DNA from: Streptomyces noursei ATCC 11455
GTDB taxonomy: Bacteria; Actinomycetota; Actinomycetes; Streptomycetales; Streptomycetaceae
DNA length: 64,000 nucleotides
Assembly (NCBI RefSeq): GCF_001704275.1
Contig: NZ_CP011533.1
Location: forward strand, 2,046,001-2,110,000
Direction of reading: 5' to 3'
The notes under the pieces were generated by a model, which saw nothing but the letters and a program-made list of their open reading frames with translations, did no database searches and was not told the DNA's origin. Positions 49,938 through 64,000 of the stretch are shown piece after piece (position 1 is the first letter of the stretch; each line of letters begins with the position of its first letter). The position numbers were made by a program, and so were the translations under genes.

Positions 49938-50603
49938 ATGACGGGAACGACGTTCGTGATCGGGGCGGGGCCCGGCATCGGCCGGGCCGTGGCCCGGCGG
50001 TTCGCCGAGGACGGCGCGTCGGTGGCGGTGCTGGCCCGCTCCCGGTCCACCGTCGACGGCGCCGTCGCGGCGGTCGAGCAGGCCGGCGGCACGGCTCTCG
50101 GCCTGCTCGCCGACGCGGCCGACGAGGCATCGCTGCGCTCCGGCCTGGACGCCGCCGTCGAACGGCTCGGCATCCCGGACGTACTGGTCTACAACGCCGC
50201 CTGGGTCCGCTACGACCGCCCCGGCGAACTGTCCGCTGCGGAGCTGACGGCGACGCTGCGGGTCAACGTGGTCGGCGCGGTGAGCGCGGTGACGCACCTG
50301 GCTCCGCGCATGGCGGCGGCCGGTGGCGGCACCGTGCTGCTCACGTCCGGTATGCCGACCCCGCGCGCCGGGGCGACGAGCCTGTCCCTCGGCAAGGCCG
50401 CGCTGCGTGCGGCCCGTTCGGTGCTCGCCGACGAGTTCGGGCCGCGCGGGGTGCACCTCGCCACCGTCACCGTCGGCGGACCGGTCTCCCCGGGATCCGC
50501 CCTCGACCCGGACCGGATCGCCGAGCACTACCTGCGGCTCGCCCGGCAGTCGACCGGGGCGTGGGAGCACGACGTCCTGATCGAGGGCGGAGCGGTCGAG
50601 TAG
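49938..50603 (+). CDS. SDR-fold protein lacking the catalytic tyrosine
   Basis: 221 aa. The cofactor motif is FVIGAGPGIGRAVARRFAED (divergent-type GxGxGIG) and VYNAA replaces NNAG. At the active site the usual Y-x3-K is L149-S-L-G-K153 (GATSLSLGKAALRA), so Tyr is Leu while Lys is kept. Ser in LLTSGM is present. It may bind NAD(P) without classical oxidoreductase chemistry, or use another residue. It belongs to a recognised branch of such SDR-like proteins in actinomycetes, but without a known reaction. Confidence 0.85.
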   Translation: MTGTTFVIGAGPGIGRAVARRFAEDGASVAVLARSRSTVDGAVAAVEQAGGTALGLLADAADEASLRSGLDAAVERLGIPDVLVYNAAWVRYDRPGELSAAELTATLRVNVVGAVSAVTHLAPRMAAAGGGTVLLTSGMPTPRAGATSLSLGKAALRAARSVLADEFGPRGVHLATVTVGGPVSPGSALDPDRIAEHYLRLARQSTGAWEHDVLIEGGAVE

Positions 50604-50702
50604 CGACAGGCCCGGTGCGGCCGGCCGGCGCGATCGGTACGGCCGGCCAGTCCACGACGGGCGCCCTCCCCGTCGGGGGGCCGGTCGCCTACCGTGGCAT
50701 CC

Positions 50703-51527
50703 ATGCCGCACGGGACTCCCGGCCATGACCCGGCCTCGGCGCGGTCGCGCCGGCACATCTTCGGCGACGACGCCGAGCAGTACGACACGGCCAGACCCGG
50801 CTATCCCCCGCAACTCGTCCAGGACGTCCTGGACTTCTCCGCGCCGGCCGCGCGCGGGCCGGCGCTGGAGGTCGGTGCCGGAACGGGCAAGGCGACGCTG
50901 GCCTTCGCGCGGGCCGGCGTACCGGTGACCTGCGTCGAGCCGGACGTCCGCATGGCCCGGGTGCTGCGCCGCCGTTGCGCGGAACTGCCCGAGGTCACCG
51001 TCGAGGTCGCCGACTTCGAGAGCTGGCGCCCCCGGCGGCGCTACGGGTTGCTGTACTGCGCACAGGCATGGCACTGGGTCGATCCCGTCGCACGCTGGGA
51101 CAGGGCGCGGGCCGCGCTCTCGCCCGGCGGAGCGATCGGGCTCTTCTGGAACCACTGGTTTCTCTCGTGCGGTGAGCTGACGGACCGTCTGACCGCCGCC
51201 CATGCCCGGCACGGCATCGAGATACCTGCGGACACCCTCCTCGATCCCCGCCCCCGCCCCGCGCGCCGCGGCCCCGAGTCCCGGCAGTGGCGCGAGATGA
51301 CGGCGGCCGGCTTCGTCGCCCCGGAGCACCGCCTCTACACCTCCGTCCACGAACGGTCCACGTCCGCCCTGCTCGGCCTGCTCGCCTCCTACGGCGGCTA
51401 CCGGGCCCTCCCCGCCCGACCCCGCGAGCGGGTCCTCGACGAGGTGGCCCGCATCGTGGACGCCCACGGCGGACACGCGCAGGTGAGGGTGACCACGAGC
51501 CTCTTCCTGGGGCGGACGGCGCGCTAG
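50703..51527 (+). CDS. class I SAM-dependent methyltransferase
   Basis: 274 aa from the ATG at 50703 (a GTG 9 bases earlier is possible). IFGDDAEQYDTARPGYPPQL, motif I GPALEVGAGTGKATLAFARA, VTCVEPDVRMARVLRRRC, CAQAWHWVDPVARWDRAR and ALSPGGAIGLFWN are the standard blocks of the UbiE/trans-aconitate-like group. The substrate is unknown. The left MITE lies 27 bases past its stop. Confidence 0.9.
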   Translation: MPHGTPGHDPASARSRRHIFGDDAEQYDTARPGYPPQLVQDVLDFSAPAARGPALEVGAGTGKATLAFARAGVPVTCVEPDVRMARVLRRRCAELPEVTVEVADFESWRPRRRYGLLYCAQAWHWVDPVARWDRARAALSPGGAIGLFWNHWFLSCGELTDRLTAAHARHGIEIPADTLLDPRPRPARRGPESRQWREMTAAGFVAPEHRLYTSVHERSTSALLGLLASYGGYRALPARPRERVLDEVARIVDAHGGHAQVRVTTSLFLGRTAR

Positions 51528-51554
51528 CCGTGCGTGCCGTGCCGTGACGCACAC

Positions 51555-51722
51555 CTAGGGCGCTTCTGATGGATCTCCGTGGAAGAAGGAGCGGCGCCTG
51601 GTGCGTGCGATCGCAAGGCGCCGGGATGTCTTCATAGCGGAGCTATGGGGGCATTTCGGCAACGCCGCGAGCGTGCGTGGCAGGCGCCGCGACGCCGCGG
51701 AGATCCATCAGAAGCGCCCTAG
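51555..51722 (+). mobile_element. MITE copy 1 (160 bp plus CTAG duplication)
   Basis: A 160-base element with terminal inverted repeats GGCGCTTCTGATGGATCTCC (51559 on) and its complement ending at 51718, flanked by CTAG on both sides (51555-51558, 51719-51722). Its interior is identical to the copy at 53452-53619, with the same orientation. It encodes no transposase, so it must be moved by an IS elsewhere in the genome. The right CTAG supplies the TAG stop of the Mrr-like gene. Confidence 0.88.
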
Positions 51723-52426
51723 GCCCAGGGCGGGCGGCCACCGCCGGCCCAACGGGCCAGGCCGCGGCCGTCGATCAGCCGGAGCGGTGCGGCGAGCGAG
51801 GCGTTGGCGACCTCGGCGTCGCGGGTGAAGCGGGAGGTGGTGACGATGACGGCGTGGTCGCAGCGGTGGTAGTCGCGGTACGTACCGTTCGCGGTGTAGA
51901 TCGCGGGGGCGCCGACCCGGTTGCCTTCGGCGTACCGCTTGCACTGCACGGCGACCCGTCGGCCGTCGTGCAGGACGACGAGGACGTCCAGCCCCCGGTC
52001 GTTGGCGCCGCCGGAAACGGTCGCGGAGCGCACGGCGGGGTCGCGGCGGGCGAGGTCGGCGACGGCGTGCTCGAACTGGGTGCCGGTCATGTGGTGGTAC
52101 GCGGCGAGGGTGTGGGTGGCGTCCTGGCGGGGCCCGATCGGACCGGGGAGGTGCAGGCGGCCGGTGCGGGCGAGGAAGACCGACGTTGCGCAGGCGACGG
52201 CGAGAACGCCGAGGACGAGGGTGGTGACGGGGTACTCGCGCGCGACCGCGGCGAGGGCGACGAGCAGCAGGCCGGCGACGACGAGTCGGGTGGCGGCTCG
52301 CTCGCGGGCGCGGCGTCGGGCGGCTCGGCCGCGGGGGCGGCGGCCGGGGCGCCGGGTCGGGCGGCGGGTGGGACGTCGGCCGGGGCGCCCTGTGGTGGCG
52401 CGTGGTCGTCGGGCTCGCGTGGTCAT
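51719..52426 (-). CDS. Mrr-like restriction endonuclease with membrane helices
   Basis: 235 aa from the ATG at 52426 with GGAGG 7 bases upstream. A very basic N-tail (Arg/Pro/Gly, 45 residues), two membrane helices (LVVAGLLLVALAAVA and VTTLVLGVLAVACATSVFLA), then an Mrr-type PD-(D/E)xK domain: MTGTQFEHAVADLARR, GGANDRGLDVLVVLHDGRRV and AVQCKRYA (QxK). Such membrane-tethered Mrr domains are widespread in streptomycetes; type IV restriction of modified DNA is known for Mrr but unproven here. The stop codon lies in the MITE target duplication. Confidence 0.85.
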   Translation of the reverse strand: MTTRARRPRATTGRPGRRPTRRPTRRPGRRPRGRAARRRARERAATRLVVAGLLLVALAAVAREYPVTTLVLGVLAVACATSVFLARTGRLHLPGPIGPRQDATHTLAAYHHMTGTQFEHAVADLARRDPAVRSATVSGGANDRGLDVLVVLHDGRRVAVQCKRYAEGNRVGAPAIYTANGTYRDYHRCDHAVIVTTSRFTRDAEVANASLAAPLRLIDGRGLARWAGGGRPPWA

Positions 52427-52612
52427 GCGGGTTCCTCCCCCTGTCGGTTGCCGTCGGCAGCCGTCCCGACCTCCGGGTCGACCGCCGTCGGCCCGCTCAC
52501 CGGCAGGACCCCTCCCGGCCCTCCTGTGTAGCCCGAACCCGATTGCGCTGCACCGCAGTTGCAAAGGGTTGGCGCGAACGTGCCGGTGGCCGGCGGCCGG
52601 GCCCGGTGGCCG

Positions 52613-53440
52613 TCAGCGTTCGCGGCGGAGGAAGGTGCGGGCGCCGCGCAGGGTGGTGCGCAGGGTGCGTTGGGTGCGGGTGCTGTCCAGGCGGACGTCC
52701 AGGGCGCCCGGGGTGCCGGTGTCGGCGCGGCGGCCGGTGGGCAGTCGGGAGGCGTCCAGGGCGTCGCGCTCGGCGATCAGCACACCGAGTTCATGGCGGC
52801 TGACCGCGTCCGCCCCGGCGAGGTGGCACACCCCGGTGTGGGCGGAGGCGGTCAGTTCCAGGAGGGCCCCGGCGAGGTCGGCGACGTGCACGGGGCACCG
52901 GAACTCGTCGGTGAACAGCGCGCCCTCGCGTCGCCCGGCGGCCAGGTCGTGGACCAGTGCCTCGTGCGCGGAACCGCCGTCGCCGATGATCAGCGAGGTG
53001 CGGGCGACGACGGCCGCGGGGGCGAGCAGCCGGATCGCCGTTTCGGCGGCGGCCTTCGCGGCACCGTACGGCGTGAGCGGGTCCGGCACGGCGGATTCGT
53101 CGTAGTGGACGTCGGCACCGGAGAACACGGCGTCGCTCGACACCTGCACCAGCCGGGCCCCGTGCCGCGTGGCGGCCATGGCCAGTTGGATCGCGCCGTC
53201 GGCCGTGGTGGCCCAGTCGGTCCTGCGATACGCCGCGTTGACGACGACGTCCGGTCGGGCCGCGCCGAGCACCCGGGGGATCTGCTCGCCGCGGCGGAGG
53301 TCCAGAGGCAGCCAGCGGGCCCCGGGGACGTCGGCGGCGCGGGTCGCGAAGGTCGCCGTCACGGTGTGGCCGGCCGCCGCCGCCCGCTGGATCAGCTCGC
53401 GGCCCAGGAAGCCACTGCCGCCTACGATCAGGAGGTTCAT
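52613..53440 (-). CDS. RmlD-like NAD(P)-dependent sugar-nucleotide reductase
   Basis: 275 aa. MNLLIVGGSGFLGRELIQRA, the middle PDVVVNAAYRRTDWATTADG, VSSDAVFSGADVHYDESAVP, then PYGAAKAAAE (Tyr-x3-Lys) match dTDP-4-dehydrorhamnose reductase-like extended SDRs. The usual partner genes for rhamnose synthesis are absent, so it may act on another substrate. MITE copy 2 sits 11 bases upstream of the ATG; there is no ribosome site, and TAGCCT 8 bases upstream could be a -10 box of a leaderless mRNA. Confidence 0.85.
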   Translation of the reverse strand: MNLLIVGGSGFLGRELIQRAAAAGHTVTATFATRAADVPGARWLPLDLRRGEQIPRVLGAARPDVVVNAAYRRTDWATTADGAIQLAMAATRHGARLVQVSSDAVFSGADVHYDESAVPDPLTPYGAAKAAAETAIRLLAPAAVVARTSLIIGDGGSAHEALVHDLAAGRREGALFTDEFRCPVHVADLAGALLELTASAHTGVCHLAGADAVSRHELGVLIAERDALDASRLPTGRRADTGTPGALDVRLDSTRTQRTLRTTLRGARTFLRRER

Positions 53441-53451
53441 GAAGCGTCAGG

Positions 53452-53619
53452 CTAGGGCGCTTCTGATGGATCTCCGTGGAAGAAGGAGCGGCGCCTGGTG
53501 CGTGCGATCGCAAGGCGCCGGGATGTCTTCATAGCGGAGCTATGGGGGCATTTCGGCAACGCCGCGAGCGTGCGTGGCAGGCGCCGCGACGCCGCGGAGA
53601 TCCATCAGAAGCGCCCTAG
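53452..53619 (+). mobile_element. MITE copy 2 (160 bp plus CTAG duplication)
   Basis: Identical over all 160 bases to copy 1 and in the same orientation, with CTAG at 53452-53455 and 53616-53619. Inside, GGCGCC...GGCGCC around TGCGATCGCA forms a secondary hairpin. Together the copies bracket the Mrr-like and RmlD-like genes (51723-53451). Confidence 0.88.
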
Positions 53620-53665
53620 GGCCTGGTGGTGTCCCGTGGCAGTCCGTCGCAGTCCGCGGCAGCTT

Positions 53666-54325
53666 CTAGCCGCTCACGCCCAGGAAGCGCAGCACCGCCA
53701 GTACGCGGCGGTGGTCGCCCTCCGCCCTGGGCAGGTCCAGCTTCGCCAGGATGTTGTTGATGTGTTTGGCCACCGCGCTTTCACTGACGACCAGTTGGAC
53801 GGCGATGCCCGCGTTGGAGCGGCCCTCGGCCATCAGCGCCAGCACCTCGCGCTCGCGCTCGGTCAGGCGCCCCACCGGGTCGCTGGGGCGCCGCACCAGC
53901 AGCTGCGCCACCACCTGCGGGTCCAGGGCCGTGCCGCCGGCCGCGACCCGGCGCAGCGCCTCGATGAACTCCTCGACGTCGGCCACCCGTTGCTTGAGGA
54001 GGTAGCCGACGCCGCTGGTGTTCGTCGCGAGCAGTTCGGCGGCGTAGCGCTCCTCGACGTACTGGGACAGCATCAGGACGGCGGTGTCCGGCCACTGCTT
54101 CCGGATGACCAGCGCGGCCCGCACCCCCTCGTCGGTGAAGCCGGGCGGCATCCGGACGTCGACGACGGCGATGTCCGGGCGGTGCTCCTCCACTGCCCGC
54201 AACAGCCCTTCCGCGTCATCGGCCTCGGCCACCACCTCGAACCCGGCGGTCTCCAGGACTTTGACCACGCCGATCCTGAGCAGGACGGAGTCCTCGGCGA
54301 TCACAGCGCGCTTGGCAGCGTGCAC
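53666..54325 (-). CDS. NarL/LuxR-family response regulator
   Basis: 219 aa. The receiver domain has the acidic pair in AVIAEDSVLLRIGV, phosphoacceptor Asp in PDIAVVDVRMPPGFTDEG, and Lys in GVGYLLKQRV. The C-terminal LuxR HTH is LTEREREVLALMAEGRSNAG, SESAVAKHINNILAKL. It is coupled to the sensor kinase gene upstream by a 25-base overlap. Targets are unknown. Confidence 0.95.
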   Translation of the reverse strand: MHAAKRAVIAEDSVLLRIGVVKVLETAGFEVVAEADDAEGLLRAVEEHRPDIAVVDVRMPPGFTDEGVRAALVIRKQWPDTAVLMLSQYVEERYAAELLATNTSGVGYLLKQRVADVEEFIEALRRVAAGGTALDPQVVAQLLVRRPSDPVGRLTEREREVLALMAEGRSNAGIAVQLVVSESAVAKHINNILAKLDLPRAEGDHRRVLAVLRFLGVSG

Positions 54326-55545
54326 GGCAGCTCCACGGTGATGGTGGTCGGGCCCCCGCGGGGGCTGTCGATGGCGAGGGTGCCGTCCACCGAGGCCACG
54401 CGGTGCGTGAGCCCGGTCAGGCCGGTTCCCCCGGAGGGGTCCGCCCCTCCCCTGCCATCATCGACGACCCGGACCCGCAGCGTGTCACCGGCCCGTGCGA
54501 CCGTCACCTCGGCGCGACTCGCCCGTGCGTGCTTGGTGACGTTCGCCAGCGCCTCGGAGACGACGAAGTAGGCCACCGCCTCCACGGCGGGCGCGGCCCG
54601 CTCGGGCACGTCGACGGCGAGTTGGACGGGCAGCGGTGCCCGGGCGGCGATGCCGGAGAGCGCCGCGTCCAGCCCGCGGTCGTCCAGGACGTGCGGGTGC
54701 AGGCCGCGTACCAGGTGGTTGAGCTCCTCCAGGGCCTCCTTCGCCTCGCGGTGCGCCTCGTCGATGACCGCTCGGGCCTCGGGCGGCAGATCGGTGAGGG
54801 TGGCCCGGGCCAGGCCCAGGTTGACCGCCAGGGACACCAGGCGCTGCTGCGCGCCGTCGTGCAGATCGCGTTCGATGCGGCGGCGCTCGGCGTCCGCGGC
54901 GGCCAGCGTCTCGGCCCGGCGTTCGGCCAGGTCCTCGACGCGCCGCGCCAACTCCTCGGCCCGGCTGGGTCCGAGCAGCCGCCGGGCGATCACCGACTCC
55001 AGGTGCAGCAGGGCACCGGTCAGGCGCGGCAGGAACGGCAGGACGACCAGCCCGACCACGCCCATCTTCCAGCCGGAGCCGTCGGACCACTGGACGAAGG
55101 CCCAGCGCCGCGGCAGCATCCAGTACCAGGCGTAGTAGGTGATGCCGCCGATGCTGCCCACCCACAGGACGAGTGCCACGGCCTCCACGGCGCCCAGCAC
55201 CGGACCGGCCAGCTGGTGGTAGCCGAGATGGCGCCAGTACGCGGCGGTGCGCAGCCGGCCCCGGGCACGTCGGAAGGCGTCGGGTGCCTTCACGGGTGGG
55301 GTGTGGGGGATGTCGGTGTCCGCGTACGTCGCGAAGCGGCGGCGCTGGAGCCAGGTCACCGATGTCGCGCCGGCGGTGGCGAACAGCAACGGAGCCACCG
55401 CCACACCGGGTGCGTAGACGACGGTGAGGCTGAACCACACCCACAGCAGGAAGGCGGCACCGTGCAGCAGGACGCCGGTGGACAGGAAGGCGGCCTGTGC
55501 TGTGAGACGGGCCCGGCGGCCTGGCCGCCCCTCGGATCGGGTCAT
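54301..55545 (-). CDS. sensor histidine kinase (HisKA_3 type)
   Basis: 414 aa. Four or so membrane segments in residues 1-180 surround a short extracellular region; the dimerisation/phosphoacceptor helix is ERRRIERDLHDGAQQRLVSL with His in DLHDGAQ, and the ATPase domain has NVTKHARAS and RVVDDGRGGADPSGGTGLTG. It phosphorylates the response regulator whose start lies within its 3' end. The signal is unknown. Confidence 0.95.
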   Translation of the reverse strand: MTRSEGRPGRRARLTAQAAFLSTGVLLHGAAFLLWVWFSLTVVYAPGVAVAPLLFATAGATSVTWLQRRRFATYADTDIPHTPPVKAPDAFRRARGRLRTAAYWRHLGYHQLAGPVLGAVEAVALVLWVGSIGGITYYAWYWMLPRRWAFVQWSDGSGWKMGVVGLVVLPFLPRLTGALLHLESVIARRLLGPSRAEELARRVEDLAERRAETLAAADAERRRIERDLHDGAQQRLVSLAVNLGLARATLTDLPPEARAVIDEAHREAKEALEELNHLVRGLHPHVLDDRGLDAALSGIAARAPLPVQLAVDVPERAAPAVEAVAYFVVSEALANVTKHARASRAEVTVARAGDTLRVRVVDDGRGGADPSGGTGLTGLTHRVASVDGTLAIDSPRGGPTTITVELPCTLPSAL

Positions 55546-55667
55546 GGGTACGACGGTAAACGCCCAGGTCAGCGGGGGCTATCACGCCTGCATCCGGAAC
55601 CGGGGTGAAGCTGGTGCCACCCCAAGTCGGACAGCGGTGCTACTGACTGCGGGCGGCGGGGAGCGGA

Positions 55668-56165
55668 GTGTTGATCGTGAGCCCGACGGACGGGTTCGCG
55701 ACACCGGAAGGATCCTCCGCCGCCATGGCCCTGACCACCCCCACCCCCCTTGCGTACACGGGCCGTTGCTGCACGGGGACCCGCGTCGGCCGCGGTGGGC
55801 CCGCGCGCCCCGGCCGGGCGCGCCGCTGGCAGGGCCGCATACTCGTGGGCTCCGGGCTCGCCCTCCTGCCCTGGCTCGGCTACCTCGCGGGCACCCTGCC
55901 GCCGGTCGAGGCGACCGCCTGGGTCACCCTCGACGTGTTGGAGGCCGTCGCCCTGCTCTCGGCCGGTACCCGCCTGTGGCGCGCCGACCTCCGTCACCGC
56001 GCCCCCGCGGCCGCCGCGGCCGTCCTCCTCCTCGCCGACGTCTGCGTCGACGTCGCCACCGCCGCCCCCGGCCCGGAACTGGCCGTCGCGGCCGCGATGG
56101 CCGTCGCGGCCGAACTGCCGTTGGCCGCCCTGTGCGGGTGGCTGGCGCGACGTCGGTCCGCCTGA
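55668..56165 (+). CDS. small membrane protein
   Basis: 165 aa from a GTG at 55668 (GGGGAGCG upstream); an ATG at 55725 is the alternative. Three to four hydrophobic segments: ILVGSGLALLPWLGYLAGTL, VTLDVLEAVALLSAGTRLW, AAAAAVLLLADVCVDVATAA and LAVAAAMAVAAELPLAALCG. It resembles the small four-helix integral membrane proteins common in Streptomyces, of unknown function. It is divergent from the two-component operon, so it might be a target. Confidence 0.72.
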   Translation: MLIVSPTDGFATPEGSSAAMALTTPTPLAYTGRCCTGTRVGRGGPARPGRARRWQGRILVGSGLALLPWLGYLAGTLPPVEATAWVTLDVLEAVALLSAGTRLWRADLRHRAPAAAAAVLLLADVCVDVATAAPGPELAVAAAMAVAAELPLAALCGWLARRRSA

Positions 56166-56280: not shown

Positions 56281-57270
56281 TCAGGGGCGTTCGGCCAGGC
56301 TGGGGACGGACGCGTCGGGGTCCGTCCGGGGGCCGGGGGCCGGCGGGTCGGTGGGAAGGCCCTCGTCGCGCAGAGTGCGGCAGACGTCCGCCAGGAGGGC
56401 GAGGTGCGGGGCGTCGCGGTCGGCCTCGGGCCAGGCGATCGCGAACGTACACGGCGGCAGGTCCGTCACGGGGAGGTAGCGGACGTCGGGCCGCGGATAG
56501 AGTTCGGCCGCGACGGCCGGCAGGAAGGCCCGGGCGCCGTCGAACGACACCGCGGACAGCAGGGATTCGACGCGGGAGACCTCGTGTGCGGTGTAGCGCA
56601 CCGGGACGCCGTCCGGTCGCGGGTCGACGGACCAGAAGTCGCGTACGGCCCGGGGCACCTGCGGCGTCAGGCTCACCATGGGGCGGTCGGCGAGGTCCGC
56701 CAGGCAGACCGAGGAGCGCTGGGACAGCGGGTCGGTGCTCGATAAGCACGCCACCCGCGCCTCCGTCGTGAGCGGCTGGATGTGGAAGTCCTCGGCCACC
56801 GGCAGATAGACGAAGGCCGCGTCGATCCGGCCGGTCGCCAGGCCCGTCACCTGCTCGACCAGGTCCACCACTCGGAAGTCGATCTCCAGGGCGGGGTGTC
56901 GGGTGGTGAGGCCGGCGATGACGCGGCGGGTGGCACCGAGCGCGGTCGCGCAGTCGGTGAGTCCCACCCGGAGCCGGAGGCCGCCGCCCTCGGCCAGTGA
57001 GGACAGGGCCGCGTCGCGCAGTTCGTCCGTCGCGCCGACGATGTTCCGCACCAGCGGCAGCAGCGCGCGGCCCACCGGGGTCACCTCCACCCGCCGGCTG
57101 GTACGGGTGAACAGTCGGACGCCCAACCGGCGTTCCAGGGTGCGGATCTGGAGGCTGAGGGCGGGCTGGGTGAGGTAGAGCCGCGCCGCGGCCCGGCCGA
57201 AGTGCAGTTCCTCGGCCAGCGTCAGCAGCGACCGCAGTTGCTGAACCGACGGATCGTAGACACCGGCCAT
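56281..57270 (-). CDS. LysR-family regulator, likely regulator of the isonitrile cluster
   Basis: 329 aa with GGAGGAAG before the ATG. Winged HTH QQLRSLLTLAEELHFGRAAA, LTQPALSLQIRTLERRLGV; effector-binding domain from residue 95 (RLRVGLTDCATALGATRRVI). It is divergent from the isonitrile synthase gene across a 534-base region with LysR-like repeats, the standard position of a pathway regulator. The inducer is unknown. Confidence 0.92.
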   Translation of the reverse strand: MAGVYDPSVQQLRSLLTLAEELHFGRAAARLYLTQPALSLQIRTLERRLGVRLFTRTSRRVEVTPVGRALLPLVRNIVGATDELRDAALSSLAEGGGLRLRVGLTDCATALGATRRVIAGLTTRHPALEIDFRVVDLVEQVTGLATGRIDAAFVYLPVAEDFHIQPLTTEARVACLSSTDPLSQRSSVCLADLADRPMVSLTPQVPRAVRDFWSVDPRPDGVPVRYTAHEVSRVESLLSAVSFDGARAFLPAVAAELYPRPDVRYLPVTDLPPCTFAIAWPEADRDAPHLALLADVCRTLRDEGLPTDPPAPGPRTDPDASVPSLAERP

Positions 57271-57293: not shown

Positions 57294-57338
57294 AATGGAT
57301 GGCACCCCGTCATCCATCAGGCATGTTAATCGATGGAT
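57294..57338. promoter_or_regulatory. LysR-type operator, three half-sites
   Basis: AATGGAT (57294-57300), ATCCATC (57312-57318) and GATGGAT (57332-57338) form overlapping inverted repeats with 9-13 base spacers, immediately upstream of the LysR gene. They fit autoregulation plus activation of the divergent cluster. Confidence 0.55.
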
Positions 57339-57804: not shown

Positions 57805-58809
57805 TTGAACGGAAAAATGATGGAGGCGTCGACCGCGACGCAGGTGTCCCAGCGTGTCCTGGAACTCCTGTATCGATATCGGCGCGTCGACGAGTCACTG
57901 GTCGAGCAGGACGGCGACACCGCGGGCGACGATCCGTGTCCGGCGTGTTTCGAGGCACACCGGGAGCGGATGGAGCACTTCATCGAGCGCGATGAGCCCA
58001 TCCACTTCGTCGTGCCGGCCTTTCCGGCGAAATCGCCGAACCAGAGCAAGGTGCTCGGCGTGCTTCCGGACCTCGGCGAGCGTCTGGCGCTGGGATTCCT
58101 GCAGTCGCTGTGTGACTACGTGGGCCACTTCTACCGTCCGGGCGCCCGGGTCACGATCTGCTCGGACGGCCATGTCTTCGGCGACGTGGTCGGGGTCGCC
58201 GACACCACGGTGACCGAATACCGGGATTCGCTCACGGAAATGATCAGCACCGCGCGGTGGTCCGCCATCGACCTGTTCGGCCTCAATGACGCATTCGGCG
58301 GCATGCACTATCCGGTGATGCGGAAGGTGCTGGAGGAGAACTACTCCGCCACCCTTGCGGAGCTGAAGGAGAAGGTCCGCAGCGACCGCAGCACGCGGTC
58401 GCTGTTCAACGGGATACACCGCTTCATGTTCGAGGACGCGGTGGCCCGCCGGGGCGCCGGCGCCTCCCGGACGAAACTGCGCAACGACTCGAAGGACACG
58501 GCGTACCAGACCATCCTGCGCAGCAACGCGTGGAGCCGGCTGGTCGCCGCGACATTCCCCCGGGCGATACGACTGTCCATACACCCGCAGCCCCCGCACT
58601 CGGAGAAGTTCGGTCTGCAGCTCATGCCGACCAGGGACGGCTGGCTGACGCCGTGGCACGGCGTGGTGCTGGACGACGGGGTGAGCTGTTCCCTCGTCAA
58701 GCGCTGGGACGCCGAGCGGCTGCACGCCACGGTCGTGTGGCGGGACGGCCGCCCGAGCCATTTCATCGCGCCCCATCTCTCCACGGCCGCACTGGAAAGG
58801 GTTTCCTGA
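57805..58809 (+). CDS. isonitrile (isocyanide) synthase, PvcA/IsnA/DIT1 family
   Basis: 334 aa from a TTG at 57805, chosen because GGAGG ends 4 bases before it; the next ATG (57817) is too far from it. The family core is DPCPACFEAHRERMEHFIER, IHFVVPAFPAKSPNQSKVLG, LPDLGERLALGFLQSLCDYV, VTICSDGHVFGDVVGV, and later RNDSKDTAYQTILRSNAWSR and HPQPPHSEKFG. These enzymes convert the amino group of Tyr or Trp into an isonitrile using ribulose-5-phosphate as carbon donor. The amino acid used here cannot be read by eye. First gene of the cluster. Confidence 0.94.
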   Translation: MNGKMMEASTATQVSQRVLELLYRYRRVDESLVEQDGDTAGDDPCPACFEAHRERMEHFIERDEPIHFVVPAFPAKSPNQSKVLGVLPDLGERLALGFLQSLCDYVGHFYRPGARVTICSDGHVFGDVVGVADTTVTEYRDSLTEMISTARWSAIDLFGLNDAFGGMHYPVMRKVLEENYSATLAELKEKVRSDRSTRSLFNGIHRFMFEDAVARRGAGASRTKLRNDSKDTAYQTILRSNAWSRLVAATFPRAIRLSIHPQPPHSEKFGLQLMPTRDGWLTPWHGVVLDDGVSCSLVKRWDAERLHATVVWRDGRPSHFIAPHLSTAALERVS

Positions 58810-58810
58810 C

Positions 58811-59617
58811 ATGGCGACTTCGACGACACCGCACGGCGCGCTCACGCATACGCCGCTGCGGCCCTTCGGCCGCATTGTGGAGTCCGCCGGCGGGGCGCGG
58901 ATCACGGATGTCCCGGCCGAGGTGCTCGCCAGGTGGACCGAGGAATCGCGGGTGCTGGTGCTGCGCGGGTTCGCTCTCATGGCGAAGGAGGAATTCGCCA
59001 CGTACTGTCGCCGCTGGGGTGAGGTGCTGAAGTGGGAGCCCGGCGAGGTCATCGACCTGGTGGTCGAGGACAACCCGAGGAACTACCTGTTCGCCAGCGG
59101 CGATGTGCCTTTCCACTGGGACGGCGCGTTCGTGGAGGCAAATCCGCGGTACTTCTTCTTCCAGTGCCTGAACTCCACTCCGGGCGCCGGCGGTGAGACC
59201 GTCTTCTCCGACACCACCGCGGTCTATCGGGACGCGGACGCCGAGCTCCGCGAGCAGTGGGCGGGCATCAGCCTGACCTATTCCACCGAGAAGCTGGCGC
59301 ATTACGGCGGACTGGTCACCGAGCGACTCGTCGCCCAGCATCCCGCGACCGGTGTACCGGTGCTGCGCTTCGCCGAGCCCCTGGACCCCGCGATCTACAA
59401 GAACCCGGTGCACGTCCGGGTCGACGGATTCGGTGCGGCGGCGGCCGAGGAGTTCCTCGCCGCCATGGCGGAGCGGCTGCATCGGCCCGAGTACTGCTAC
59501 GCCCACGACTGGCGGACGGGAGACATCGTGATCGCGGACAACTACGCGCTCGTGCACGGCCGCAACGCGTTCTCCGGCCCGACGAACCGGCATCTCCAGA
59601 GGGTCGAGGTCATCTGA
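58811..59617 (+). CDS. Fe(II)/2-oxoglutarate oxygenase, PvcB/IsnB-like (TauD family)
   Basis: 268 aa, one base after the synthase stop. The iron triad is His102-x-Asp104 (PFHWDGAF) and His249 (ALVHGRNAF), and the 2-oxoglutarate Arg lies in the following TNRHLQRV. PvcB/IsnB enzymes desaturate the amino-acid isonitrile, often with decarboxylation to an aryl-vinyl isonitrile. The tight coupling to the synthase makes that role likely. Reaction outcome (vinyl isonitrile or dehydro-amino acid) is not decided by sequence reading. Confidence 0.93.
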   Translation: MATSTTPHGALTHTPLRPFGRIVESAGGARITDVPAEVLARWTEESRVLVLRGFALMAKEEFATYCRRWGEVLKWEPGEVIDLVVEDNPRNYLFASGDVPFHWDGAFVEANPRYFFFQCLNSTPGAGGETVFSDTTAVYRDADAELREQWAGISLTYSTEKLAHYGGLVTERLVAQHPATGVPVLRFAEPLDPAIYKNPVHVRVDGFGAAAAEEFLAAMAERLHRPEYCYAHDWRTGDIVIADNYALVHGRNAFSGPTNRHLQRVEVI

Positions 59618-59665
59618 GGCCCTCCGCAGGACTTTTTCCCGTCCCCGCACAGGTGGAGCGAAAGA

Positions 59666-60904
59666 ATGAGCATTGGCATTGTGGGTGCCGGAATCTCCGG
59701 TCTGCACCTGGCACTTCGGCTGCAGCAGTTCGGTCTCGACACCACGCTGTACACGGCCAAGGAGCCGGACGGCCTGCGCAGCGGGCCTCCGCTGAACTTC
59801 GTCACCCGTTTCGATTCCACCAGGAGGCGGGAACAGGCCCTCGGTATCACCCGATGGTCGTCCAGCGCCTACGACAACGCGTGGATGCACATGAGCGTCG
59901 AAGGCCCCGGCGGATTCGGATTCCGGGGCCGGCTTCCGCAGCCGGCGAGTTCCGTCGATTTCCGGATGTACCTCGCCGCACTGTTGGAGGCATATGCCAA
60001 GCGGGGCGGTGACGTGACGGTCCGCTCCGTCGCGGACGGGCCGGAGCTGGCCGGGCTGGCCGGGCGGCACGACCTCCTGGTCGTCGCCGCCGGCCGGGGG
60101 GCGCTCACCGACACCTTCGGGCGCGACCCGGCCCGCTCGCCGTACCGCACCGCACCGCGTCACCTGGCGGGCGGGCTCTTCCACGGAGTCCTGCCCGCCG
60201 ACCCGCCGGGGATGACCATGCACATGGTCCCGGGTGCCGGCGAGATCCATGCCCCGGCCTACCACTCGTTCGCGGGGCAGGTGACCGTCGTCCTGGTCGA
60301 GGCGGTGCCGGGCGGCCCGCTCGGCCCGGTCACCGAGACCGGCTACCGAGAAGATCCTGGCCGGTTCGGCCGGGACGTGCTGGAACTGATCACCCGTCAT
60401 GCGCCGCTGCTCCGAGAGCGGATCGACGCGCGGGAGTTCGCCCTCACCCGCCCCGTCGACATGCTGCACGGCGCCGTGGTGCCGGTCGTCCGGCACGGCT
60501 GGTCCGACGTGGGCGGGGGCACCTTCGCGCTGGCGGTCGGCGACGCCTGGATCGCCAACGACCCGTTGACGGCGCAGGGCGCCAACCTGGGCTCCGCGCT
60601 GGCCTTCCAGCTCGCGGACGAGCTCGCGGCCCACCAGGGCCCGTTCGACGAGGAGTTCTGCCGCGCGGTCTCGGAACGGATGTGGGTCACCGCCCGGCCC
60701 GTCGTGGAGTGGACCAACCTCTTCATCGGCGAGCCACCGCCACAGGTGGCGAGGCTGCTGGCCGCGGCGGCGGGGGACCAGCGGGTGGCGGACGCCTTCG
60801 TGGCCAATCTCGACCGGCCGGAAGAGATGTGGCGGACCGTCAACTCCCCTGGCCAGACTGAGGAGTTCATTGCGCAGGCACAGGCAGTGAGGAGCGGGGT
60901 ATGA
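59666..60904 (+). CDS. styrene/indole monooxygenase-like flavoprotein 1 (StyA family)
   Basis: 412 aa, the length of StyA. FAD motif MSIGIVGAGISGLHLALRLQ, DGLRSG, DLLVVAAGRGAL, and the C-terminal FAD loop LAVGDAWIANDPLTAQGANL match styrene monooxygenase oxygenases, including the conserved end region RPEEMWRTVNSPGQ. StyA takes FADH2 from a separate reductase and epoxidises aryl-vinyl groups. In this cluster the expected vinyl isonitrile is a styrene-like substrate. The stop overlaps the next start (ATGA). Confidence 0.9.
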   Translation: MSIGIVGAGISGLHLALRLQQFGLDTTLYTAKEPDGLRSGPPLNFVTRFDSTRRREQALGITRWSSSAYDNAWMHMSVEGPGGFGFRGRLPQPASSVDFRMYLAALLEAYAKRGGDVTVRSVADGPELAGLAGRHDLLVVAAGRGALTDTFGRDPARSPYRTAPRHLAGGLFHGVLPADPPGMTMHMVPGAGEIHAPAYHSFAGQVTVVLVEAVPGGPLGPVTETGYREDPGRFGRDVLELITRHAPLLRERIDAREFALTRPVDMLHGAVVPVVRHGWSDVGGGTFALAVGDAWIANDPLTAQGANLGSALAFQLADELAAHQGPFDEEFCRAVSERMWVTARPVVEWTNLFIGEPPPQVARLLAAAAGDQRVADAFVANLDRPEEMWRTVNSPGQTEEFIAQAQAVRSGV

Positions 60905-62046
60905 GCGTCGACGTCGGCCTGGTCTGGGATGCCGTGGGGGACATCGCCGGCGGTCGCGGCCTCCTGGAGACCGCGCGCACCGCCGGGTTGGACACCTTCC
61001 TGGTGTTCGACCACCTGATCAACGTCTTTCCCCGGCAGGCGTGGGACACCGATTTCAGCTACCTGGCGGCGGCGATGCCGACCCCCGACCGGTGTCTGGA
61101 CTTCGCCACCGTGCTGGGCAACTTCGCGCCGCAGGCAGGGCCCGTCCGGCTCGCGATCGGGGTCACCGACCCCAACCGCCGGCACCCCGCCGTGCTGGCC
61201 CAGACCGCCCTCACCCTCGCCCAGCTCACCGAGCGGGCACCGGTCCTCGGCATCGGCGCGGGCGCCGAGGAGAACCTCCGGCCCTACGGCGTACCGCACG
61301 ACCGCAAGGTCAGCCGGGTCGAGGAGGCGCTGCGGATCCTCCGGATGTTCTTCGACGGCGAGGGGCCGCACGACTTCCGGGGGGAGTTCTTCACCCTGGA
61401 CCAGGCGCTCATGGGCCTGCCCGCGCCCGAGGGCCGCACCCCGCGCATCTGGCTGGGCGGCAACCGCGACCGGATGCTGCGCCTGGCCGGCCGCTACGCC
61501 GACGGGTGGCTCCCGTCGGAGCTGATGACGCCCGAGGAGTACGCCCGGCGGCTGCGCGTGGTGCGCGTGGCGGCCGTGGCGGCCGGCCGCGACCCCGACG
61601 GCATCGTCGCCGCCGGCGGGGTGCCCATCGTGGTGGCCGAGACCGATGCGGCGGCCCACGCCCTGTTGCGCGCCAAGCCGCTCCGCTTCCTCGCCCTGCA
61701 CGCGGGCGCGGAGTCCTGGCGGGCGCACGGGTTCGCGCACCCCTTCGGGGAGGACTACCGGGGGCTGGTGGAGCTCCTGCCGCATCGGCTGACCCGTGCC
61801 GAGGTGGACCGCGCGATGGCGGCGGTCCCCGACGAGCTGGTGGCCGAACAGGTCGTCGTGGGGAGCCGGGAGACCGTGCTGAAGCGGATCGGGGAACTGC
61901 TCGACGCCGGCATGCGGCACCCCATGCTCATTCCGGCCTCGGCGATGGCCTCCCCCGAGGCCGCGGGGTTCACCATCGAGTCCGTCGGTTGGCTCGCCGA
62001 GCGGCTGCGGTCGGCGTCCATCCCCGAGGAGGGAGGGGTCGCATGA
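60901..62046 (+). CDS. LLM-class flavin-dependent oxidoreductase
   Basis: 381 aa. The luciferase-like barrel shows FLVFDHLINVFPRQAWDTDF, LAIGVTDPNRRHPAVLAQTA, LGIGAGAEENLRPYGVPHDR, RILRMFFDGEGP and RIWLGGNRDRMLRLAGRYAD, typical of F420- or FMN-dependent members. It is sandwiched between two StyA-like genes with 4-base overlaps at both ends, so it acts in the same pathway. It may reduce or oxidise the isonitrile product, or use F420; not decided. Confidence 0.9.
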   Translation: MSVDVGLVWDAVGDIAGGRGLLETARTAGLDTFLVFDHLINVFPRQAWDTDFSYLAAAMPTPDRCLDFATVLGNFAPQAGPVRLAIGVTDPNRRHPAVLAQTALTLAQLTERAPVLGIGAGAEENLRPYGVPHDRKVSRVEEALRILRMFFDGEGPHDFRGEFFTLDQALMGLPAPEGRTPRIWLGGNRDRMLRLAGRYADGWLPSELMTPEEYARRLRVVRVAAVAAGRDPDGIVAAGGVPIVVAETDAAAHALLRAKPLRFLALHAGAESWRAHGFAHPFGEDYRGLVELLPHRLTRAEVDRAMAAVPDELVAEQVVVGSRETVLKRIGELLDAGMRHPMLIPASAMASPEAAGFTIESVGWLAERLRSASIPEEGGVA

Positions 62047-63317
62047 CGAGCGTCGGCATCATCGGGTCCGGCATCTCCGGCGTACAACTCGCCTTGCGGT
62101 TACAACAGTTGGGCATTGCGGCGACGGTCTACTCGACGCAGGACATCGACCAGCTCAAGTCCGGCCGACCGCGCAACTTCCCGGCGCGGTTCGCCCCCAC
62201 CCAGGAGCGCGAGCGCCGGCTGGGGGTGTCCGCCTGGGACTTCCCGGACGCGCAGGTGCATCACTGGTCGATCAGCGTGCACATCGACGGGCCCGCGCTC
62301 GCGTTCCCGGCCCGGCTCGCTCCGCCGTCCAGTGTGGTGGACTTCCGACTGTATCTGCCGCACCTGCTGGGCGAGTTCGTCGAGCGCGGCGGCACGCTCG
62401 ACGTGGGCGAGCCCGCCGTCGAGGACGTCGCCCGGCGGCACGATCTGACGGTGGTGGCGAACGGCAGCCGCTCGTTGCGGGAGCTGTTCCCGCCGGTGCC
62501 GGAGCGCTCACCGCACACCACCCCGCAGCGCATCCTGTGCAGCGGGCTGTACTTCGGCATCGACGAGGCGGTGCCGCACTCGCTCGACATCCACTTCCTG
62601 CCGGGGATCGGGGAGATCCTGCGGCTGCCCTTCTTCTCCCCGGCCGGGCGGGTGGACGTGCTCGCCTTCGAAGCGGTGCCCGGCGGTCCGCTGGAGACGG
62701 TCAGCCATCTGGACGCCGACGCCGACCCGGGGGCCTTCCACCGCGCCGTGCTGGACCTCGTCGCGACGTACGCCCCCTCGCTCCGCGAGCGCATCGACAC
62801 CGGGGACTTCGCGCTCATCTCGCCGGGGGAGGTCGCCCAGGGCGGGATCACGCCGGTGGTCCGCCGCGGCTGGGCACGACTGGCCGACGGGCGCTGCGCG
62901 CTGGCGATCGGCGACGCCTGGATCACCAACGACCCGCTCACCGCGCAGGGCGCCAACCTCGGCTCGCACTCCGCCTTCGCGCTGGCGGAGCTCGTCTCGA
63001 CGGCCCGGGGGCCCTACGACGAGGAGTTCTGCCGGTCCGCCTCCGCCGCGCTCTGGGAACACGCGCGGCACGTCGTGGAATGGAGCAACGCCTTCCTCGA
63101 CGCGCCCGCGCCGCACGTGTCGGCGTTGTTCGCGCAGGCCGCGGCGGACCGGCGGGTGGCCGACGCGTTCGTCAGCGGGTTCCACGACCCGGTCGCCATG
63201 TGGCGCACGCTCTCCAGCGAGGAGGGCGTGGCGTCCTTCGTGGCCGCCTGCCGGAGCGGGACGCCGGCGGAGCCGAGCCCCGTCGGACCGCACCCCACCG
63301 GTCCACGGCAGCGCTGA
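62043..63317 (+). CDS. styrene/indole monooxygenase-like flavoprotein 2 with a TTA codon
   Basis: 424 aa from the ATG at 62043 inside the LLM stop. MTSVGIIGSGISGVQLALRL, LKSGRPRNFPARFA, DLTVVANGSRSL, and LAIGDAWITNDPLTAQGANL mirror the first StyA-like protein. FHDPVAMWRTLSSEEG is the conserved end. It is a paralogue, so the two may act on different double bonds or as a heteromer. Codon 20 (62100-62102) is TTA, so translation needs the developmentally regulated bldA tRNA. The Pro-rich tail is extra. Confidence 0.9.
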   Translation: MTSVGIIGSGISGVQLALRLQQLGIAATVYSTQDIDQLKSGRPRNFPARFAPTQERERRLGVSAWDFPDAQVHHWSISVHIDGPALAFPARLAPPSSVVDFRLYLPHLLGEFVERGGTLDVGEPAVEDVARRHDLTVVANGSRSLRELFPPVPERSPHTTPQRILCSGLYFGIDEAVPHSLDIHFLPGIGEILRLPFFSPAGRVDVLAFEAVPGGPLETVSHLDADADPGAFHRAVLDLVATYAPSLRERIDTGDFALISPGEVAQGGITPVVRRGWARLADGRCALAIGDAWITNDPLTAQGANLGSHSAFALAELVSTARGPYDEEFCRSASAALWEHARHVVEWSNAFLDAPAPHVSALFAQAAADRRVADAFVSGFHDPVAMWRTLSSEEGVASFVAACRSGTPAEPSPVGPHPTGPRQR

Positions 63318-63330
63318 CCCCGCCCCGGCC

Positions 63331-63395
63331 TCGATCCCGGTACCGATCCCGATTCCGATTCCGATCCAGATCCCCGATTCCGATCCAGATCGCGA
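63331..63395. repeat. hexamer-like tandem repeat before the cupin gene
   Basis: Variants of GATTCC/GATCCA/GATCCC recur with a period of 6 (with 2-base slips) across about 60 bases between the second StyA-like gene and the cupin gene. It looks like slippage; no function is evident. Confidence 0.6.
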
Positions 63396-63406
63396 CAAGG
63401 AGAGCG

Positions 63407-63928
63407 ATGTCACTCCCGGACATGACGTACGACGAGAAGGGGCGGCTCATCCCGGAGTCCGAGCAGACCGCGGTCTGGCTGCTCGGCGGGCTGGCGCAGA
63501 TCCGGGTTCCCGGCGCGGCGACCCGGAACTCCTTCACCGTCGTCCAGCACACGGGCAACCGCGGCTACACCACGCCGGTGCACGTCCACGACTTCGAGGA
63601 CGAGATCTTCGTCGTCCTGGACGGCACCCTGCGCATGGTCTGCGACGGCGAGGAGCAGATCGCCGAGGCGGGCTCGACGATGATCGTCCCGCGGACGATT
63701 CCGCACGGCTTCGTGACGACGTCGCCGCACGCCCGCTTCCTGACCATCCACTCGACGCCGCAGCCGGACCGCAGGCCGCAGTTCGACCTGTTCCTGGACG
63801 CCGAGATTCCGCACGCGAAGGCGCTCACGCTGCCCACGGAGGACGTGGGCGGCCCCGACCTCGACCACATCATCGCCCTCGGCTCGCAGTACGGGTACGG
63901 CTACGCGGGCCCGCCGCTGACCCCCTAG
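63407..63928 (+). CDS. cupin-domain protein of the isonitrile cluster
   Basis: 173 aa from the ATG at 63407 with AAGGAG 5 bases upstream. Cupin motif 1 is TPVHVHDFEDEIFVVLDGTL (His, His, Glu), motif 2 is GSTMIVPRTIPHGF with the last His. It resembles quercetinase-like or metal-binding cupins. The acidic ends (DVGGPDLDHI) are typical. It may act as an oxygenase or isomerase on the pathway product. No partner residue can be assigned. Confidence 0.88.
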   Translation: MSLPDMTYDEKGRLIPESEQTAVWLLGGLAQIRVPGAATRNSFTVVQHTGNRGYTTPVHVHDFEDEIFVVLDGTLRMVCDGEEQIAEAGSTMIVPRTIPHGFVTTSPHARFLTIHSTPQPDRRPQFDLFLDAEIPHAKALTLPTEDVGGPDLDHIIALGSQYGYGYAGPPLTP

Positions 63929-63987: not shown

Positions 63988-64000
63988 ATGTCGTTGAAGC
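63988..64000 (+). CDS. start of a further cluster gene (partial)
   Basis: ATG at 63988 reads M-S-L-K before the window ends. AGAAGAGA lies a few bases upstream as a weak ribosome site. The coordinate and direction suggest the cluster continues, but nothing can be said about the product. Confidence 0.4.

What the first reader, a model, noticed from the sequence alone, without database searches (positions are those of the whole stretch)
57805..63928. Isonitrile cluster with two styrene-monooxygenase-like enzymes
An isonitrile synthase and a PvcB/IsnB-like oxygenase (which make aryl-vinyl isonitriles in known pathways) are followed in one operon by two StyA-like flavoproteins, an LLM flavin enzyme and a cupin. 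StyA epoxidises styrene-like double bonds, and an aryl-vinyl isonitrile is such a substrate, so an epoxy-isonitrile or a product derived from it is predicted. I do not know of a described cluster with this set; no StyB-like reductase is seen in the window.
Basis: partly seen in the sequence, partly recalled or inferred. Interest (0 to 1): 0.85.

Follow-up and report, generated by a model that had tools for sequence, protein, structure and literature searches.

The report
Isonitrile cluster with sulfur-transfer enzymes
Streptomyces and related soil bacteria carry a gene cluster that probably makes a reactive isonitrile, oxidises it with styrene-monooxygenase-like enzymes and, from genes just past the window, adds sulfur with a specialised rhodanese, so the likely product is a mustard-oil-like or sulfur-ring compound and not a plain epoxy-isonitrile.

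Summary
The hidden half holds a transporter, a two-domain rhodanese, an SDR, a SufS-like cysteine desulfurase, a second LLM enzyme, a berberine-bridge-type oxidase and an SsuE flavin reductase.

The set from LysR to the oxidase recurs at 62-86% identity in three named Streptomyces and one genome of another genus, and at 96-100% in S. noursei A-2-1. Two more genomes have a short form: LysR, IsnA, IsnB, LLM1, StyA2, transporter, rhodanese, desulfurase, and a Flavin_Reduct reductase.

The rhodanese is a dedicated second copy. Its active-site loop is CWVGAR in 8 of 8 clusters read, against CRIGER in 7 of 7 other copies; in the capped protein listing 51 of 52 top-ranked against 0 of 68 next. A rhodanese turning an isonitrile into an isothiocyanate is reported for sinapigladioside (passages, PMC12112954). 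I therefore predict an isothiocyanate, or a thione ring formed from it. No reaction or product was tested. An epoxy-isonitrile remains possible as an intermediate. New variant of a known kind.

The parts
56281..57270 (-). LysR-family regulator, divergent from the operon; present in all 8 clusters read and in G301
   Evidence: Pfam HTH_1 and LysR_substrate; orthologues at 55-99% identity in the clusters; in the short form it lies beside the desulfurase gene
57313..57337 (.). Candidate LysR site TCCATC-N13-GATGGA in the LysR-IsnA gap
   Evidence: Conserved in the alignment of six clusters, one base of one arm differing in L039; read by eye, binding not tested
57805..58809 (+). IsnA: isonitrile synthase (PvcA/Dit1 family), TTG start
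   Evidence: PF05141 262 bits; PvcA 3e59 244 bits; conserved GAGGA..TTGAAC start in six clusters
58811..59617 (+). IsnB: Fe/2OG oxygenase, metal ligands HWD...H kept, reaction-selectivity positions V and A (neither PIsnB nor PvcB type)
   Evidence: rule from PMC9467999 section 12
59666..60904 (+). StyA1: FAD-dependent styrene/indole monooxygenase family, long form of the cluster only
   Evidence: Smoa_sbd; StyA model 317 bits, under its cut-off of 550; absent from short form
60901..62046 (+). LLM1: luciferase-like flavin or F420 enzyme, in both forms
   Evidence: PF00296; F420 subfamily models under cut-off
62043..63317 (+). StyA2: styrene/indole monooxygenase family, core of both forms; an orthologue has a solved structure (9j0h)
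   Evidence: Smoa_sbd; 9j0h 654 bits; 9j0h 98.5% to S. vilmorinianum P0019; start codon
63401..63928 (+). Small cupin with metal-type motif (HxH, E, H), long form only
   Evidence: PF07883; motif found in this protein (meaning recalled); quercetinase-like relatives
63988..64000 (+). First 13 bases of the MFS transporter gene. The operon goes on beyond the window; continued coordinates (L004 position + 56999): MFS 63988-65187, rhodanese 65242-66132, SDR 66286-67092, cysteine desulfurase 67131-68567, LLM2 68564-69451, BBE oxidase 69453-71126, SsuE flavin reductase 71185-71745, all +

Best explanation
An actinobacterial biosynthetic cluster that makes an aromatic isonitrile and then sulfurates it. 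IsnA makes the isonitrile of an aromatic amino acid and IsnB desaturates it (inferred from family). StyA2, fed by a flavin reductase (SsuE here, a Flavin_Reduct protein in the short form), oxygenates the side-chain double bond or an indole ring (inferred). A cysteine desulfurase loads sulfur from cysteine and a remodelled rhodanese passes it to the isonitrile carbon, giving an isothiocyanate (R-NC to R-NCS), which could close to an oxazolidine-2-thione or oxazole-2-thione if a beta-oxygen is present (inferred). StyA1, cupin, SDR, LLM2 and the BBE oxidase form a later tailoring module found only in the long form (inferred order). MFS exports the product and LysR controls the operon (inferred). 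Shown here: gene set, conservation, two forms, dedicated rhodanese and desulfurase copies, altered rhodanese loop, reductase neighbours. Not shown: any reaction or product.
For: IsnA, IsnB, rhodanese, desulfurase and StyA2 occur together in 8 of the 9 loci read with close StyA2 orthologues (67% or more); the ninth (G301) lacks the first four of this type. Two of the 8, the window genome and S. noursei A-2-1, are near-identical and hardly independent. The rhodanese is a second copy in 5 of 6 genomes while the ordinary copy is in 6 of 6; the sixth is G301. Same pattern for the desulfurase. Loop CWVGAR 8 of 8 against CRIGER 7 of 7; 51 of 52 against 0 of 68 among the 120 listed of 2377 database matches; one clade with support 1.0 after leaving out P0151. 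Of 18 positions conserved at 90% or more but different in the two groups, several lose charge in the cluster type: R to W, E to A, R to L, D to G, H to F. The loop Cys of rhodanese and the Lys and Cys of six of six desulfurases checked are kept. Precedent: B. gladioli rhodanese converts R-NC to R-NCS with thiosulfate (passages of PMC12112954). Flavin reductase in 4 of 5 clusters with both flanks read.
Against: No product or activity is known to me. No sequence of the B. gladioli rhodanese was available to compare. A rhodanese and a desulfurase could serve detoxification or another sulfur step. IsnB selectivity positions match neither tested class, so the alkene is not assured. The desulfurase family shows no sharp identity gap from its core relatives. 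S. eurythermus gave no match to three reductase queries in the stretches read. G301 keeps StyA1, LLM1, StyA2, cupin, MFS and SDR without the sulfur genes, so the StyA enzymes may also work on a sulfur-free substrate.
Confidence: 0.6

Rival explanations
1. One reading: StyA enzymes epoxidise an aryl-vinyl isonitrile and the end product is an epoxy-isonitrile; the sulfur genes are accessory.
For: StyA family membership; linked reductases; G301 keeps StyA1 and StyA2 without sulfur genes.
Against: Rhodanese and desulfurase are in 8 of 8 loci with the cluster's own IsnA/IsnB and StyA2; the rhodanese loop changed in a uniform way, which an accessory role does not call for.
Confidence: 0.15
2. Self-protection: rhodanese and desulfurase detoxify cyanide or stray isonitrile released by the pathway, and the exported product keeps its isonitrile.
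For: Rhodanese classically turns cyanide into thiocyanate (PMC12112954 passages); in the window genome the gene sits next to the exporter.
Against: The loop lost charged residues, which I take to suit a neutral organic acceptor better than cyanide or thiosulfate (inference); all six genomes searched already have an ordinary copy.
Confidence: 0.15
3. The sulfur goes elsewhere, for example into a thiazole, thioamide or thiol made from the oxidised side chain, with the isonitrile carbon as ring carbon or lost.
For: The long form has many oxidising enzymes: BBE, SDR, LLM2, cupin.
Against: The two short-form loci have the sulfur genes, and tblastn found none of these enzymes in the 20 kb (G519) or 40 kb (G074) read; the precedent I saw is for sulfur on the isonitrile.
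Confidence: 0.1

Closest known systems
Sinapigladioside pathway of Burkholderia gladioli (Dose 2021, Mlotek 2024; originals not held, seen only through PMC12112954 passages; compound described in PMC5414355 passages)
   Same: Isonitrile turned into an isothiocyanate by a rhodanese thought to be recruited from detoxification
   Different: Here a linked cysteine desulfurase, StyA-type monooxygenases, LLM enzymes, flavin reductase and LysR; no glycosyltransferase among the conserved genes although sinapigladioside is a glycoside; actinobacteria. The gene content of the Burkholderia cluster was not seen, so a desulfurase or regulator there is not excluded
PvcA/PvcB (paerucumarin) and the isonitrile synthase/PIsnB pair of rhabduscin
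   Same: IsnA and IsnB families side by side (pairing in the known systems partly recalled)
   Different: IsnB selectivity residues V and A instead of K/R with N/H or L with C; further tailoring differs
Styrene monooxygenase StyA/StyB
   Same: StyA domain family; a reductase nearby
   Different: 317 and 303 bits against the StyA cut-off of 550; the short-form reductase is of the Flavin_Reduct family (that of StyB, recalled), the long-form one is SsuE type
Aerocyanidin and amycomicin (epoxy-isonitriles; Zheng 2024, seen as a reference and one passage in PMC13273461)
   Same: Isonitrile together with an epoxide
   Different: That passage names AmcQ, AmcB and P450s; no PvcA or StyA is mentioned in it

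Membership tests
PvcA/IsnA isonitrile synthase | DIT1_PvcA domain over full length | tested here: met
   262 bits, residues 57-306; PvcA 3e59 over residues 15-324. Below the L-tyrosine equivalog cut-off, 255 against 600, so the substrate is open
PIsnB-type vinyl-isonitrile oxygenase | K or R at 107 and N or H at 188 (PIsnB numbering) | tested here: not met
   V and A in 8 of 8 clusters
PvcB-type isocyanoacrylate oxygenase | L and C at the same positions | tested here: not met
   V and A in 8 of 8 clusters
Styrene monooxygenase StyA | NCBIfam StyA equivalog cut-off of 550 bits | tested here: not met
   317 and 303 bits; the family domain Smoa_sbd is met
Two-component monooxygenase system | Linked flavin reductase | tested here: met
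   SsuE in the window genome and G495; Flavin_Reduct in G519 (2.2 kb from the rhodanese gene) and a 77% relative in G074; no match to three reductase queries in S. eurythermus; S. noursei, NRRL S-31 and S. achromogenes not judged, loci end too early
Isothiocyanate-forming rhodanese pathway | Rhodanese converts R-NC to R-NCS | not testable with these tools
   Needs an assay
Isothiocyanate-forming rhodanese pathway | Dedicated rhodanese linked to isonitrile synthase | tested here: met

The most novel reading that the evidence does not exclude
Actinobacteria evolved their own isothiocyanate branch: a cysteine desulfurase to rhodanese relay delivers sulfur to a side chain that StyA2 has oxygenated, giving goitrin-like aryl-oxazolidine-2-thiones or oxazole-2-thiones, made by a family of specialised rhodaneses (51 listed) with a CWVGAR loop that can be used to mine genomes for isothiocyanates.
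Probability: 0.22. Interest if true: 0.82.

Novelty: new variant of a known kind. Interest (0 to 1): 0.62.

Why it matters
If true, bacterial isothiocyanate formation is not confined to the Burkholderia case but is a recurrent actinobacterial pathway with a sequence signature that predicts it. Named hosts of the CWVGAR rhodanese are Streptomyces, Kitasatospora, Streptosporangium, Amycolatopsis, Actinosynnema, Nocardia and a Jatrophihabitans assembly; close StyA2 proteins are also named from Saccharothrix, Kutzneria and Allokutzneria. Isonitriles and isothiocyanates are reactive, often antimicrobial groups, and the two forms suggest an order of pathway steps. Only 3 of 394 family genomes carry a StyA2 of 72% or more (own genome included), so it is rare but traceable.

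Tried and rejected
Rejected: the cluster as a six-gene unit ending in the window. Rejected: upstream genes (HK, RR and others, 49938-56165) as part of it; they were found beside the cluster only in S. noursei A-2-1, as far as the flanks reach. Rejected: StyA1 and StyA2 as a fresh tandem duplication; their common ancestor on the tree also holds StyA-like proteins from other loci; the StyA1 group itself has poor support, 0.07. Rejected: IsnA loci in general as carriers of this set: 2 of the 10 best non-own loci and 0 of 20 further loci, taken one per genome from its next rows (two of these cut short by contig ends). StyA-like relatives at 40-53% identity: 0 of 11 loci have IsnA, rhodanese or desulfurase. 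Tyr against Trp as substrate could not be settled. A plasmid search gave four StyA-like records, all under 60%. The publication behind structure 9j0h was not found (and the structure route below failed). In one search the entry P0151 (48% identity, 428 aa, CRIGER) sits by rank among the 52 top rhodaneses and is counted there as the one exception; it was left out. Capped listings: searches show 120 of 337, 2377 and 6918 matches, and searches scored only the 8000 candidates sharing most words.

Contig co-occurrence uses equality of the longest-contig length printed by the protein searches, a proxy: StyA2-like 19 of 60; control 0 of 40 (40 of the 60 lower-ranked StyA proteins listed were used) and no match of the 60 with 32 of the 68 lower-ranked rhodaneses; desulfurase 16 of 34 top-ranked against 0 of 84 next (two of 86 entries had no contig length).
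Full report
Observation. The window is G000:C1:2046001-2110000 of a 9.8 Mb single-contig genome. Two starts were looked at: StyA2 begins at ATG 62043, not 62046, and IsnA at a TTG behind a ribosome site conserved in six clusters. Genes overlap or nearly touch (IsnA/IsnB, StyA1/LLM1, LLM1/StyA2), as in an operon.

The hidden half. Fetching the DNA past the window showed seven more genes in the same direction: MFS, a protein with two rhodanese domains, SDR, class V PLP enzyme with SufS as best model (215 bits, under its cut-off of 475), LLM2, BBE oxidase and an FMN reductase above the SsuE cut-off, 202 against 164 bits. The BBE protein has the His and Cys motifs of doubly attached flavin and the cupin its metal motif (this genome only; motif meaning recalled).

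Conservation. With 22 reference proteins, tblastn found the set from LysR to BBE in order in Streptomyces sp. NRRL S-31, S. achromogenes NRRL B-2120 and S. eurythermus JCM 4206 at 62-86%, and in S. noursei A-2-1 at 96-100% (S. eurythermus was read as G181, whose contig has the same length as the named record). L038, L039 and L040 end inside the BBE gene, so SsuE could not be judged there. G495, from another genus, has the whole set plus SsuE. The flanking genes used as queries were found only in S. noursei, which sets the borders as far as flanks were read. Two genomes, G519 and G074, have a short form: LysR, desulfurase, IsnA, IsnB, LLM1, StyA2, MFS, rhodanese, and a Flavin_Reduct protein 77% alike between the two. 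G074 also holds an F420_oxidored and an acyl-CoA-dehydrogenase-like gene there. G301 has LysR, StyA1, LLM1, StyA2, cupin, MFS and SDR, but no cluster-type IsnA, IsnB, rhodanese, desulfurase, LLM2 or BBE in the 32 kb read; an IsnA/IsnB pair of 52% and 46% identity lies about 5 kb from its LysR gene, followed by a halogenase-like gene.

Specificity of the association. Among the 10 best non-own IsnA loci, 2 have StyA2, rhodanese and desulfurase and the other 8 have none of them. Of 20 further IsnA loci none has them. Of 11 loci with StyA-like proteins at 40-53% none has IsnA, rhodanese or desulfurase. Close copies are rare: StyA1 of 70% or more in 3 of 392 genus genomes, StyA2 of 72% or more in 3 of 394 family genomes and 2 of 394 class genomes, the own genome counted each time.

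The rhodanese. In six genomes searched the five with the cluster have a cluster copy (68-100%) and an ordinary copy (50-53%); G495 has one more at 48%; G301 has only the ordinary copy (49%). Around the loop Cys 8 of 8 cluster copies read CWVGARS and 7 of 7 others CRIGERS. In the protein database the 120 listed of 2377 matches show 62-100% identity down to rank 52, except P0151 at 48%, then 56% or less; loops are CWVGAR in 51 of 52 and CRIGER in 68 of 68. Without P0151 the 51 form one clade with support 1.0. Eighteen positions are conserved at 90% or more in both groups but differ between them, with charge lost at several, among them R to W and E to A in the loop. I infer an acceptor that is neutral and organic.

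The desulfurase. The cluster copy is in 5 of 6 genomes (not G301), while a 55-57% relative is in 6 of 6, beside a glycosyl-transferase-family-3 gene (trpD-like) in L160 and a look-alike in L161, and a more distant relative (32-41%) is also in all six. Active-site Lys and Cys are kept in the six of eight cluster copies checked. The 34 top-ranked database proteins (67-99%) share contig length with StyA2-type or rhodanese-type proteins in 16 cases, the next 84 in none. Unlike the rhodanese, there is no sharp identity gap.

IsnB. PMC9467999 (abstract and sections 4, 7 and 12 read) gives positions 107 and 188 as predictors: K/R with N/H for vinyl isonitrile, L with C for isocyanoacrylate. In 8 of 8 clusters IsnB has V and A; the same in L084 and L086, and A with A in L045, L087, L088, L089 and L090; L092, L104 and L115 have the PIsnB-like residues, L091 V with N and L105 V with Q. 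The paper also reports that single changes at these positions did not switch the product, so the rule is only a guide.

StyA. Both proteins carry the StyA substrate domain and score 317 and 303 bits on the StyA model, under its cut-off. StyA2 is orthologue-like to the solved chain 9j0h (654 bits), which is 98.5% identical to a protein named from S. vilmorinianum whose contig has the length of G519, the short form. So somebody has studied this enzyme structurally; I could not find the paper. The six StyA2 read here fall in a clade of 44 with support 0.91; StyA1 is a separate group with weak support.

Mechanism. Amino acid to isonitrile (IsnA), desaturation (IsnB), oxygenation (StyA2 with reductase), sulfur transfer (desulfurase, rhodanese), export (MFS). 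All steps are inferred, and the order of oxygenation and sulfur transfer is unknown. If oxygen sits beta to an isothiocyanate, ring closure to an oxazolidine-2-thione is expected from goitrin chemistry (recalled). In the long form SDR, BBE, LLM2, cupin and StyA1 may tailor further. PMC12112954 (passages) reports that the B. gladioli rhodanese makes an isothiocyanate from an isonitrile using thiosulfate; the primary papers are not held. SsuE was used with FAD in WelH assays in PMC4236562 (passages; WelH as a halogenase is recalled, and the outcome was not read), so an SsuE partner for an FAD enzyme is reasonable. PMC13067344 was seen in passages and adds only that the sinapigladioside cluster is under LysR-type control in one strain.

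Novelty. Searches of open papers for isonitrile synthase with styrene monooxygenase (0 papers), isonitrile or isocyanide synthase with PvcA, epoxide and Streptomyces (3 papers), isonitrile with isothiocyanate and rhodanese (2 papers; 15 listed of 99), isonitrile synthase terms (40 listed of 88), and Streptomyces gene clusters (10 papers, none with styrene monooxygenase; 3 papers) gave no description of this cluster in the listings seen; most subscription papers are outside that library. The kind of chemistry is known; the gene set, the linked desulfurase and the loop signature are what I did not find described.

Noticed in passing
G000:C1:8699377-8700120 and 7965360-7966112 (L006, L007): The genome has two further isonitrile synthases, 40-42% identical to the cluster's by tblastn; none of the cluster's other genes was found in the 20 kb stretches read.
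   Followed up: partly
L046 7185-12025 and L051 8520-10540: A different StyA-like group (about 49% to StyA2) with a weak SDR match beside it; in L046 the neighbours are an HpaB-type hydroxylase and a weak AMP-binding match. Probably a separate cluster type.
   Followed up: no
L047 8393-11312: StyA-like protein (47%) with its own flavin reductase and LLM monooxygenase beside it; StyA-like proteins of 46-47% also in L048 and L049, whose neighbours were not annotated.
   Followed up: no
L044 10050-18028 and L045 3017-6656 (G301): StyA1-LLM1-StyA2-cupin-MFS-SDR cluster without sulfur genes, near a more distant IsnA/IsnB pair followed by a halogenase-like flavoprotein; may make a sulfur-free, possibly halogenated relative.
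   Followed up: partly
L084 13227-15036 and L086 4034-5829: IsnA/IsnB pairs of 57-71% identity to the cluster's but without StyA, rhodanese or desulfurase in the 20 kb read; possible simple relatives.
   Followed up: no
P0151: 428-aa metagenomic rhodanese of 48% identity that ranks high yet has the ordinary CRIGER loop.
   Followed up: no
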